From Tricholomella constricta (lineage: Eukaryota > Basidiomycota > Agaricomycetes > Agaricales > Lyophyllaceae), in NCBI GenBank assembly GCA_013368375.1, contig JAACJP010000004.1, positions 868,001 through 932,000 on the forward strand: a stretch of 64,000 nucleotides of DNA. Reading direction: 5' to 3'. Position 1 is the first letter of the stretch, and each line of letters opens with the position of its first letter. Below the pieces are notes generated by a model. That model was not told where the DNA came from. It searched no databases and worked only from the letters and a program-made list of their open reading frames with translations. A program made the position numbers and the translations under genes. Positions 14,673 through 19,227 of this stretch are shown here, piece after piece.

Positions 14673-17600
14673 ATGACCGACGACGAAATCTCTGAGGGAC
14701 CTCCTAGCGGCCTTTTCTTTGCTGGATCAGATGATGAAAGCGAGGATGTGCCCATGCAACAGGCCGAGACTCCAGCTGCCACAGCATCGGGAGCCTCGTC
14801 ACCTCTCAGCCTCTTCCTGCCTGATAGCGACGACGAAGAGCAGTCTAAGGACCTGATTCAGTCGCCCCTGCCTATCAAGCGGAAAATGATTCTACCGGAT
14901 GACAGCCAGGACGATGAGATCCGGCTTCCTTCCCCAATAACATACCGTCGAGCATCGAGTGTGCGGAGCGTCAAGAAAGCTTCAGCCAAGTCGGCCTCCC
15001 CTACGCCCCTTCCGAAGCCTGTTGAAGCGGCAGGACCACCGCCCAAAAAGCGACGCATCTCACCACCCTCGACGTCCTCTATTCCAGCCTTCCCACCGAC
15101 TTACTTGGGTGAGGTTCTGGTTCCCAATGCTTGGAGTAATGTATCCGGAAAGGGCTACATCAAATCCAATGAACCAATAAGAATCTACCGCGATGACCAG
15201 GAGGAGTCCAAGCCTGATCCAAGCAAACCGGCTGCTGCACAACGGAAGAAGGGCGATGGAAAGAAGCAAATGTCACTGACGGCGATGCTAAAACCTCAAC
15301 CTTCAAAGATGAAGAAGAAAGTGAAAGGCGACAACATTGTCCGTATACTCAATGATCGAGGCACAGGTGAGCATGCACGTTGGGCTCATGCATTTGACTG
15401 ATCCAAGTTGCAGAATTTGGTCGTCTCCCGACTGACGTATCCTGGTGGGTATCAAAATTATTAGACCTGGGTACGACAAAGGGCGTGTGTCTTATTACAT
15501 ACTTATACATGCCCTGCAGGTATTGTGGAATTCCGAGGCACGATGACGGATTGTCCGGAGCGACTCACCACGGGTGCAAGCCTCTTCGTCACCCTACAAG
15601 TATACTTACTTGCATCCGCTTTTAAACCTCCCACCATTTTGAATTTGGACGAAGGACCGAACCACATGTTTAATGAGGGCCAAGAGACGTTGGACGAGAA
15701 GTAAATCCTCTTATCAGCAACTTGAGAAGGCATATTGATTGGTGCTATCTAAAAAATAGGACACTAAGGGAGCGAAAGGAGGCGATTCTACGTCTATTCG
15801 ATGTCATTGGGCTCAAGCCTCAGGCCGGTGCCAACTTCAGAGCTCCCAAGGACGAGGAAAGGATTCACGAGGAGGCCCTCAAGCGTCTCGCAAAGCATAA
15901 ATCCAAAAAGGTGACAGAAATCGTTGGGGACGATGAAGAAATCGAAGTCGACGATGCAGAGGACCTCTCGAAGAATGACATTGATGCCATCTATAAGAGG
16001 TGCAATCTAACCATCGTCTCGCATTGCAGAAGCTGACTCTTGATAGGGCTCAATGTAACGATCGAGCCATGGGGACCATGGAGCCCGCTGACACGTTCAC
16101 ATATACTCTCCGAGGGTATCAGAAACAAGCATTGCTGTATGGAAAAAATTTGCATAATCTGCCGAGACGAGCATCAATACGAGTATTTCAGGTGGATGCA
16201 TTCCCTTGAATCGGGTGAAATGGACGCCCGCGAGTCGTCTTCTATGCATCCTCTCTGGACTCAGTATGATATATGGTAAATGAATGACCAAACTCGCCTT
16301 GATGAACCTTTCTACTAGGTATATCTGCCCTCAAGAGCCCGTTTTGGATGGAGATCTTATTGACCTCACTGCGGACGACAAGCCTTTCTACATGAACCCG
16401 TATTCTGGTGAAATGAGCCTGGAATTCCCCAAGTCGGAAAGAAAATTTAGAGGAGGCATTCTCGCGTAGGTTGTATTTCCTGTCATATTCAGGGGGAGCT
16501 GACTCTGCTTGTAGTGACGGTACTTTAGTTCTATCCTGTACTTTTTTCCTACTCGCCCTAAATCTATCGTTCGCAATTTTTTTTTACAGAGAGTACGTCT
16601 TCACATTCTTTGCAAGTTCTTGAGACCTACTCACCAAATCTTCTTTAGTGGGTATGGGGAAGACAATAATGCTGTCTGCCCTTATCCACACTAGTCCCCC
16701 ATACGAGGAAGACACGGTAGCACGGCAAGCAGCGAAACCACGGCAATTAAAACTAAATAGCGCCTTCCGCCCTGCGATCCAACGCAAGCCCAAAAGACCT
16801 AGTTCCGCAACATTGATAGTTGCTCCCACTTCACTGCTAGCTCAATGGTCAGAGGAGCTTCAGCGGTCAAGTAAACCTGGAACGGTGAAGACTCTCGTTT
16901 GGCATGGTCAAAACCGGCTTGACCTGGAACCTGCGATCGAAGGCACTGACGATGATGATACGTGTATCCAAGTCGTCATCACCTCTTACGGGGTACTAGC
17001 TTCCGAACACGCAAAATCGGAAAAATCCAGCGGCAGAAAATCTCCAGTCTTTGAGAGTCTGTTGAAGTACTTTTGAGGAGGGTGTAAAAGTTGACATTTT
17101 CGTTCTAGTTGATTGGCTTCGAGTCATTCTAGATGAGGCTCATTCTTGCAAATCTCGGTCAAGTAAAACGGCGAAGGCCGTTTATGCTCTACAGGCTCAT
17201 AGAAGATGGGCTGTTACAGGTTTGTTGGATGAATTCCGGTTTCGTCGCCTCAATTTGACGATTCTGCTTCACAAAGGAACACCCATCGTCAACAAGTTGG
17301 AGGACCTATACTCCCTTCTGTCAGAAATCCTCGCGCCAGCTAAAATTGGTGATCTAACTATGATTACAGGAAATTCCTGGACTTCAAACCTTGGTCAGAC
17401 TTTGCCTTCTTTCGTTCGTGCGTCTCCTCTTCTCTGCACCACTTGACCCTTCAATATGAGTACTCCAGATTCATTACATTGCCCTTCCTGGCACGCGATC
17501 CCAAGGCCATCGAGATCGTTCAAGTCATCCTTGAAAGCGTCTTGTTGCGGCGAGAGAAAAACATGCGCGACACGGATGGCAACAAGATTCTGGAACTTCC

Positions 17601-19227
17601 CACAAAAGAGGTGCGCACCCTGGTGATGAAAATGGCAGGCTTTCAAACACGTCACTATACAGGTCGTGGTCGATATGTTGGAGTTTTCACCTCTCGAGAA
17701 AAAAATCTATGACCAAATCTACACCACTGCGAAGAGGAACTTTGAGAAGTTGAACGCCAAAGGACTTGTCAGCAGGAACTACACCCACATCCTTGCAATG
17801 CTCATGCGGTCAGTACTTGCCTATTGCGAAGGCATATCTATGCCTAATACTTCTTGAAGTTTGAGACGAGCTGTACTGCACCCAAGCCTCGTCCTCACTG
17901 CCGATGATGAGCGTGTACTCTCTCCTGGTGGCGATGGAGCAGTCGATGTCAATGAAATGATTAGACAATTTGCTGACAACGAAAGCGTCGGGGAAGGTAG
18001 TAGCAATAATTCCTTTGCAGAGGAAGTCTTGTCAAATTTGGCGGACGCTGAAGCTGAGGAATGTCCGATTTGCCTGGACGTGATGGACACGCCAATGATT
18101 ATTCCAGGCTGCATGCATCAATGGTGAGGTCAAATCATACATATTAAATACTTACTGACACCTAGTGTTCAAGCTGCAAGGACTGCATCCTCGCGCATCT
18201 GTCCGCCTGCCATGAGAAGGGCGAACAATCGCGCTGCCCAACCTGCTCACAAGGTCCTATAAAGGTGGAGTACTATAAGTTATGTTGTTCACTCGCTAAT
18301 TCTCTGCATTGACATGGTAGGCAAGCGAGCTACTTGAAGTCGTGCGTCGAAAGAAGAATCCAGAGGTATCCAGCTCTCAAGCCTCTCAGCCTGAGGTGAC
18401 TTTACGCCGGAATGACTTCACCTCTTCAACGAAGATACAGGCCCTCCTAAAAAGCCTCCGTGCGTGCTGATAAACTTTTTTTTTGATTTTCTTCACCTTC
18501 CGCCGTTTCGCGCAGAACGTCTCCGAGATCAGGATCCCTGTTTCCGAGCTGTTGTATTCTCTCAATTTACGAGTTTCCTGGATCTCATCCAGGTCGCATT
18601 ACAACGTGAACGGTATGACCAATATCGGTTTGATGGATCTATGGACATCAAGAAGAAAAACGCTGCCGTTGCAGAGTTCAAGTCACTTTCACGGAAGCCG
18701 AAGGTGCTGGTCATCAGTCTGAAAGCTGGTGGCGTCGGTTTAAATGTCATATTTCTTGTTTGATTTGTTTCCATCTTACTCATTTTGATATCTTTCATTC
18801 AGCTAACGACAGCCAATCATGTATTTATGGTGAGTCCTATAATCGTCCGACTGGGAAAGAATACCTACTCTAGTTTATTGTAGATGGACTGCTGGTGGAA
18901 TTCCGCGACAGAGAATCAAGGTAAGGTATCTCTAAAGCAAAGAACATCCCCAGCTCTGAATCTGAACTTGATAGCTATCGACCGCGTCCACAGAATTGGC
19001 CAGGAAAAGACAGTTTACGTGACGCACTTCATTGTACGTCCATTATTTCCCCTTCACCTCATCTTTCTGATCAAATAGTGCAGGTGGCGAATACGATTGA
19101 GGGCCGCATCCTGCAGATACAGAAACGGAAGACGGCCATCGTTAAAGAAGCATTCCGGGGCGCTCAGAGCGCAGGGGCTGACCCTGAAAGTATCGAGAAC
19201 TTGAAGATCATGTTTGGGGATGATTGA
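14673..19227 (+). CDS. RAD5: DNA repair helicase / ubiquitin ligase RAD5 (HIRAN-SNF2-RING)
   Basis: I could follow 23 exons with every phase consistent, giving 1129 residues, close to yeast Rad5 and fission yeast Rad8. Exons: 14673..15366, 15414..15470, 15520..15700, 15760..15999, 16047..16136, 16192..16275, 16319..16465, 16515..16519, 16590..16592, 16649..17056, 17109..17219, 17277..17319, 17370..17417, 17469..17610, 17663..17808, 17860..18123, 18174..18264, 18321..18459, 18516..18745, 18803..18829, 18884..18920, 18975..19033, 19084..19227. Rad5 polyubiquitinates PCNA and reverses stalled forks in error-free damage tolerance. Visible in order: acidic N-terminus, HIRAN block ([20 protein letters not shown]), Walker A ADEMGMGKT at residues 498-506, DEAH at 645-648, RING from 868 (CPICLD ... 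CCKDCI ... CPTC), and helicase motif [10 protein letters not shown] near 1065-1072. The gene shares a short divergent promoter with CCT7. ATG at 14673 is preferred over the in-frame 14622. Confidence 0.95.
16515..16519 (+). other. 5-nt microexon of RAD5
   Basis: Bases TGACG lie between a cttgtag acceptor and a gtactt donor. They supply the last base of the Ala codon, the Asp codon and the first base of the Glu codon in ADEMGMGKT. Without this exon the motif cannot be read. Confidence 0.82.
16590..16592 (+). other. 3-nt microexon of RAD5
   Basis: Bases AGA lie between a ttttacag acceptor and a consensus gtacgt donor. They complete the Glu codon and start the Met codon of ADEMGMGKT; the next exon begins at 16649 with TG of that Met. 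Flanking introns are 70 and 56 nt, normal for this genome. Confidence 0.8.

What the first reader, a model, noticed from the sequence alone, without database searches (positions are those of the whole stretch)
16466..16648. Two consecutive microexons (5 nt and 3 nt) inside the RAD5 Walker A motif
Reading the SNF2 motif ADEMGMGKT requires splicing 16465 to TGACG (16515..16519), to AGA (16590..16592), to 16649. All six splice sites are GT-AG, two donors are gtac-type and one is the consensus gtacgt. The three introns are 49, 70 and 56 nt, and the phase is exact on both sides. A 3-nt exon is near the lower limit known for spliceosomal exons, and two in a row across a catalytic motif is striking. 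Missplicing would destroy ATPase activity, so this could make RAD5 expression sensitive to splicing efficiency.
Basis: partly seen in the sequence, partly recalled or inferred. Interest (0 to 1): 0.82.

Follow-up and report, generated by a model that had tools for sequence, protein, structure and literature searches.

The report
Twin microexons in mushroom RAD5 gene
A mushroom DNA-repair gene encodes its ATP-binding loop in four pieces, two of them exons of only five and three bases; relatives in several mushroom orders share the arrangement, and most of the deposited protein models checked get this spot wrong.

Summary
Exons TGACG (16515-16519) and AGA (16590-16592), between GT-AG introns of 49, 70 and 56 nt, are the only enumerated reading that gives ADEMGMGKT; 0 of 20,000 shuffles gave such a two-exon reading. 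Motif I is intact in 23 of 148 genome-annotated relatives, six other SNF2 motifs in 139-146, a RING pattern in 115; 9 of 9 transcript-like relatives have it. Read-through stretches show the 3-nt exon as CAG|ARA|GT in 8 of 33 cases, nearest to Agaricales, Boletales, Polyporales and Russulales where placed; two also show the 5-nt exon. I conclude that both microexons are real, old and normally included; RNA of T. constricta itself was not available. Skipping AGA keeps the frame and shortens the P-loop by one residue, so the 'expression' idea needs changing. Exons of 1-6 nt, also in series, are already published. In passing, motif I is interrupted in 16 of 19 parsed SNF2 genes, with candidate 1-, 6- and 11-nt microexons.

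The parts
14673..19227 (+). RAD5 gene (HIRAN, SNF2 ATPase, RING, helicase C), 23 coding exons in my model; the deposited model starts 17 codons earlier
   Evidence: intron 16 corrected to 18124-18173
16319..16465 (+). exon 7, ends ..GGILA (GC of the Ala codon)
16466..16514 (+). intron 7, 49 nt, GTAGGT..TTGTAG, branch-like CTGAC 12 nt before the end
16515..16519 (+). exon 8, 5-nt microexon TGACG; also needed for the deposited reading
16520..16589 (+). intron 8, 70 nt, GTACTT..TTACAG, with a run of T before the acceptor
16590..16592 (+). exon 9, 3-nt microexon AGA; skipped by the deposited model
   Evidence: in relatives as a K or R codon (AAA/AGA type)
16593..16648 (+). intron 9, 56 nt, GTACGT..CTTTAG
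16649..17056 (+). exon 10, starts TG GGT ATG GGG AAG ACA, (M)GMGKT

Best explanation
Both microexons are genuine spliceosomal exons that are normally included, so the mature RAD5 mRNA encodes ADEMGMGKT. Three very short introns, each with its own donor and acceptor, are removed by intron definition. Because neighbouring splice sites lie 3 and 5 nt apart, the introns are probably removed one after another (inference). The arrangement is old in Agaricomycetes. An intron at GAC G|AG (intron 8) also seems present in more distant fungal relatives and is probably the oldest; introns 7 and 9 were gained 5 nt upstream and 3 nt downstream of it, leaving the microexons between (inference). One lineage probably lost all three introns later. 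Gene predictors usually miss the 3-nt exon, so most of the deposited mushroom RAD5 proteins looked at here carry a broken motif I that the organism most likely does not have. Shown: the sequence, its presence in relatives and the annotation errors. Inferred: order of splicing, order of intron gain, and inclusion in T. constricta itself.
For: A unique ADEM reading, absent from 20,000 shuffles as a two-exon parse. Motif I intact in 23 of 148 genome-annotated relatives, but motifs Ia, II, III, IV, V and VI in 139, 146, 144, 145, 140 and 145 of 148; 9 of 9 transcript-like relatives have motif I. Matched pair: transcript-like P0043 reads GGILADEMGMGKT, while the Armillaria fumosa gene model (P0048, 95.1% identical) reads GGILA-YVGMGKT (name). 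29 of 148 models read exactly LADV, the product of skipping the 3-nt exon. 23 of 23 models that read LADG continue with residues fitting a GTR donor (background 72%, binomial 0.0005). 10 of 10 models with an insert before EM have a preceding residue fitting YAG|AG (background 47%, 0.0005); 23 of 27 with an insert before V fit YAG|TG. Of 33 long stretches before V-GMGKTI, 8 (7 unnamed ORFs and the Marasmius oreades gene model P0062) contain Q[KR]V at intron distance (shuffle mean 0.011, maximum 1 in 2000 rounds); 13 of 33 show a signature in one of two frames (shuffle mean 0.33, maximum 3). P0238 (nearest Tetrapyrgos, 87% over 135 aa) and P0258 (nearest Scleroderma, 78% over 137 aa) show both microexons, with introns 8 and 9 of 68 and 52 nt.
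Against: No RNA from T. constricta was available. The same assembly's deposited protein lacks E-M and reads ADVGMGKT, although it also drops the conserved GVGLN of motif V, so it is not a reliable witness. 'Transcript-like' is my inference from uninterrupted ORFs of 1,007-1,159 aa on contigs of 3.4-4.2 kb (8 of 9) or 15 kb (P0010). The acceptor of intron 9 scores worst of the 22 RAD5 introns. 20 of the 33 long stretches show no signature, and the RING pattern, also cut by an intron, is intact in only 115 of 148 models, so motif I is not the sole weak spot. The relatives' DNA was seen only as translated ORFs, mostly of unnamed source.
Confidence: 0.93

Rival explanations
1. The deposited model is right: only the 5-nt exon is used and T. 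constricta RAD5 reads ADVGMGKT, with no 3-nt exon.
For: It is the deposited protein and keeps the frame, and 29 of 148 genome models read the same.
Against: 9 of 9 transcript-like relatives read ADEMGMGKT. CAG|ARA|GT signatures in relatives. The solved RAD5 6L8N and yeast ISW1 read ADEMGLGKT. The V is what G|TG splicing yields. The same model also breaks motif V.
Confidence: 0.04
2. The 3-nt exon is an alternatively spliced, frame-neutral switch: inclusion gives ATPase-competent RAD5, skipping gives a full-length protein with HIRAN and RING but a P-loop one residue short.
For: 3 nt keeps the frame; the intron 9 acceptor is weak; a 3-bp exon is regulated in human RPS24.
Against: No skipped form among the 9 transcript-like relatives; they are cluster representatives, so a minor isoform could be hidden.
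Confidence: 0.08
3. The locus is a decaying RAD5 copy, and the split motif is damage.
For: None found. An apparent frameshift in the RING region was my own wrong choice of acceptor.
Against: The rest of the gene reads through with GT-AG introns (compared with P0001); one match of the exon-10 protein in the assembly; 84% and 81% identity to Lyophyllum shimeji and L. atratum over the full query.
Confidence: 0.01

Closest known systems
Conserved, misannotated small microexons of plants (PMC8831610, Nat Commun 2022; abstract start and passages read), including adjacent 5- and 12-nt exons (also PMC11096116, passages)
   Same: Very small exons in conserved coding sequence, often missing from annotation, kept over long times, absent in lineages whose gene is intronless
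   Different: Plants, other genes; found with RNA-seq. Here fungi, a helicase P-loop, exons of 5 and 3 nt
One-nucleotide exon of Fusarium CYP621A (Nelson and Syed 2026, PMC12940212; abstract and passages read)
   Same: A fungal exon below codon size, inside a conserved motif, missed in gene models, needed for the frame
   Different: One exon of 1 nt, in Fusarium, with SRA reads as proof; here two exons in series, across orders of Agaricomycetes
Codon-sized microexons of Tuber melanosporum NACHT-ANK genes (Iotti et al. 2012; seen only as cited in PMC4986451 and PMC10197012)
   Same: Multiple 3-nt exons in a fungal gene family
   Different: There alternative splicing diversifies receptors; here inclusion appears constant and the residues are catalytic
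Human RPS24 consecutive microexons of 3, 18 and 22 bp (PMC12686416; passages including part of the abstract)
   Same: A 3-bp exon next to other microexons
   Different: Regulated alternative exons of a ribosomal protein gene
Microexons of Phanerochaete chrysosporium P450 genes (PMC1184071, passages)
   Same: Agaricomycete microexons among introns mostly of about 50 nt
   Different: Shortest exon given there is 6 bp; P450 family

Membership tests
Spliceosomal microexon | Exon of at most a few tens of nt between canonical introns with correct phase | tested here: met
   5 and 3 nt; six GT/AG sites; phases exact
Spliceosomal microexon | Inclusion shown in RNA of the same organism | not testable with these tools
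   no reads held; only transcript-like relatives, 9 of 9 with the motif
Evolutionarily conserved microexon | Same exon at the same position in distant relatives | tested here: met
   3-nt exon signature in 8 of 33 long stretches by the strict frame, 2 of them with the 5-nt exon as well; nearest named relatives in Agaricales, Boletales, Polyporales, Russulales where placed, P0219 unplaced
RAD5/HLTF family | HIRAN + SNF2 ATPase + RING between the helicase lobes + helicase C | tested here: met
   P0001: HIRAN 174-293, SNF2-rel_dom 432-822, zf-C3HC4 880-924, Helicase_C 969-1079, each above its Pfam cut-off
RAD5/HLTF family | Motif I DEMG.GKT | tested here: met
   only with both microexons
Regulated microexon switch | Two isoforms with condition-dependent ratio | not testable with these tools
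   no skipped form seen among 9 transcript-like relatives

The most novel reading that the evidence does not exclude
Motif I of SNF2 ATPases is a preferred landing site for introns in mushrooms, so that ATP binding in many of these enzymes depends on exact splicing, with microexons of 1 to 11 nt in four paralogs; in RAD5 the frame-neutral 3-nt exon acts as a toggle between an ATPase-competent and an ATPase-dead, RING-bearing protein.
Probability: 0.1. Interest if true: 0.75.

Novelty: new member of a known kind. Interest (0 to 1): 0.5.

Why it matters
Of the 148 genome-annotated mushroom RAD5 proteins looked at here, 125 do not match the intact ATP-binding motif; most look like gene-modelling errors, though 6 differ only by one residue of DEM (DGM three times, DAM, DQM, DVM) and could be real. 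Functional or evolutionary inferences from such models would be wrong. The locus is a clean natural test of how the spliceosome handles exons of 3 and 5 nt in series, and a good benchmark for gene finders and aligners.

Tried and rejected
Frameshift in the RING region: my first model used acceptor CCTAG for intron 16 and lost the frame; comparison with P0001 showed that TTCAAG|CTGC gives CMHQCCKDC. My query therefore had an X and a few wrong residues there. Intron 6: the deposited model leaves out four residues (12 nt) of mine; not resolved, outside motif I. The query followed the deposited form there.

Other readings of the gap: 6 frame-keeping ones, only one reads ADEM; ADVLGMGKT (TGACG + TAC) keeps the length but not the conserved residues.

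DNA of relatives from contig collections: one scan each of genome contigs and viral contigs found no relative. The careful tree did not finish; the quick tree was shown in its place, with 72 of 161 inner branches drawn open. DEAD-box control for motif I: interrupted in 4 of 21 parsed loci out of 30 (two pairs overlap; one of the four, L071, is a low-scoring parse), and only 35 of 96 candidates were scored, which favours intron-poor genes, so it is a weak control. RING control pattern: 115 of 148, weaker than the other controls. First looks at own-genome motif I by plain translation and by a stricter pattern were superseded. Paper searches: 10 used. 'microexon' + 'HLTF' gave 0 papers. Of 456 papers holding at least 3 of 'microexon', 'RAD5', 'intron', 'fungi', I saw only the 15 listed.

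Full report
WHAT IS THERE. The window lies on contig C4 of a 44-Mb fungal assembly. The protein search returned a deposited 'DNA repair protein RAD5' of Tricholomella constricta, 99% identical to my model, on a contig of 2,020,224 bases, the same length as C4; I take the window to be that species (Agaricales, Lyophyllaceae). The deposited protein has HIRAN, SNF2, RING and helicase C domains. My model has 23 exons and 22 introns of 43-70 nt, all GT-AG.

THE TWO MICROEXONS. The motif ADEMGMGKT is read as ..CTCGC | TGACG | AGA | TGGGTATGGGGAAGACA, with introns of 49, 70 and 56 nt. Of 6 frame-keeping readings with one or two exons of at most 14 nt, this alone gives the motif. Among 20,000 dinucleotide shuffles none gave a two-microexon reading and one gave a single-exon reading.

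WHAT THE DATABASES SAY. The deposited protein of the same assembly reads GGILADVGMGKT: the 5-nt exon is kept and the 3-nt exon skipped. The same protein also lacks GVGLN of motif V. I collected 157 relatives: two searches with 120 rows listed each, out of 4447 and 3458 hits, with overlap. By source I treated 148 as genome-annotated and 9 as transcript-like. The 9 are uninterrupted ORFs of 1,007-1,159 aa from sources lgn (8) or jgi (1), 8 on contigs of 3.4-4.2 kb and P0010 on 15 kb; P0010 contains what looks like one retained intron in its HIRAN region. Motif I is intact in 23 of 148 and 9 of 9; the pattern also accepts ADEV (P0015) and ASEM (P0031). The other six SNF2 motifs are intact in 139-146 of 148; a RING pattern in 115 of 148. 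The fault is therefore concentrated here. Of the 148, 29 read LADV, 22 read LADEM (one of them, P0019, breaks two residues later), and the rest read on into an intron, lose the end of exon 7, or differ otherwise. In the closest matched pair, transcript-like P0043 has the full motif and the 95.1% identical Armillaria fumosa model does not.

DNA-LEVEL EVIDENCE FROM RELATIVES. A third search with a 293-aa query listed 120 of 383 hits, all short by design. Many are ORFs that start in an intron and run into exon 10, so their letters are translated intron (my reading of them). Of 33 stretches of at least 15 residues before V-GMGKTI, among all 277 proteins, 8 contain Q-K/R-V at a distance fitting an intron 9 of 49-58 nt, that is CAG, an AAA- or AGA-type codon, then GT. 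Seven are unnamed ORFs and one is the Marasmius oreades gene model P0062. Shuffling gave a mean of 0.011 and a maximum of 1 in 2000 rounds. A further 5 fit in a second frame, 13 in all (shuffle mean 0.33, maximum 3). Twenty of the 33 showed no signature; several of these are ordinary exon sequence or only just long enough. P0254 shows the same QKVS but was outside that count because its motif is followed by V, not I. P0238 and P0258 also show S-D-G, that is AG|TGACG|GT, 68 nt before the 3-nt exon. By best BLAST match the 7 unnamed ORFs sit nearest Tetrapyrgos (P0238), Leucoagaricus or its transcript-like neighbour (P0264, P0267), Scleroderma (P0258), Pilatotrama (P0245) and Dentipellis (P0263); P0219 stays unplaced. 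Orders were looked up for Marasmius, Scleroderma, Dentipellis and Pilatotrama and recalled for the others.

AGE AND ORIGIN. In a quick tree the signature ORFs are spread through the mushroom group. Seven ORFs with an uninterrupted GGILADEMGMGKT form a group (support 89) with P0219, which has the 3-nt exon, as sister (87): probably a later loss of all three introns. P0231 branches outside the other 111 mushroom rows (97 for the joint group, 92 for the 111); it and several more distant fungi read an insert followed by EM GxGKT, as if only intron 8 were present. Another SNF2 gene of this genome (L036) has an intron at the same place, GACG|ATATG. I infer that intron 8 is oldest and that introns 7 and 9 were gained close to it. 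Support is modest and some branches are long.

HOW IT WORKS. Each intron has its own donor and acceptor. Inclusion of both exons yields the catalytic loop. Loss of TGACG breaks the frame; loss of AGA alone keeps it and removes one residue of the P-loop. Whether cells use this is not known.

NOVELTY. Exons of 1-6 nt, exons in series and widespread misannotation are all published. What I did not find in print, within the searches, is this RAD5 case.

A WIDER PATTERN. In 24 SNF2 loci of this genome (20 fetched, three, and RAD5), motif I could be parsed in 19 and contains at least one intron in 16, 21 introns in all; 5 loci gave no parse. Read by hand, motif III has an intron in 7 of 17 genes (16 parsed plus RAD5; L033 is unsure, and L040 was counted as uninterrupted although its best parse has an intron), and motif II in 4 of 13. 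Fisher p for motif I against III on these hand counts is 0.014. These are mechanical parses without RNA. Three further candidate microexons appear: 6 nt (L033), 11 nt (L043) and 1 nt (L039); shuffles gave such a reading in 11, 0 and 69 of 5000.

Noticed in passing
L039 (G000:C34:303000-306500, +), motif I at locus 2061: SNF2 gene whose motif I GLLGDDMGLGKT needs a one-nucleotide exon..GGCTTG|gtgcgt..tgtag|G|gtgagt..aactag|GCAAAACC, introns 61 and 52 nt. Such a reading arose in 69 of 5000 shuffles.
   Followed up: partly
L033 (G000:C13:129800-134600, minus strand): Paralog of RAD5 with HIRAN and SNF2 matches and a 6-nt microexon GGTTTG in motif I (ADAM|GL|GKT), introns 55 and 50 nt.
   Followed up: partly
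L043 (G000:C44:112500-116500, minus strand): RAD16-like SNF2 gene (name recalled from the motif) with an 11-nt microexon GACGAGATGGG in motif I, introns 57 and 47 nt.
   Followed up: partly
24 SNF2 loci of G000, including L036-L055: Motif I is interrupted by introns in 16 of 19 parsed genes, at many different positions; motif III in about 7 of 17, motif II in 4 of 13.
   Followed up: partly
window 18746-18802: The deposited RAD5 protein of this assembly also loses GVGLN-type residues of motif V at intron 19; the motif is intact in 140 of 148 models.
   Followed up: yes
protein P0239 (Tephrocybe sp.) and P0187 (Cerrena zonata): Gene models that end at ..GGILA or begin just after motif I, as if the gene had been split at the microexons.
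   Followed up: no
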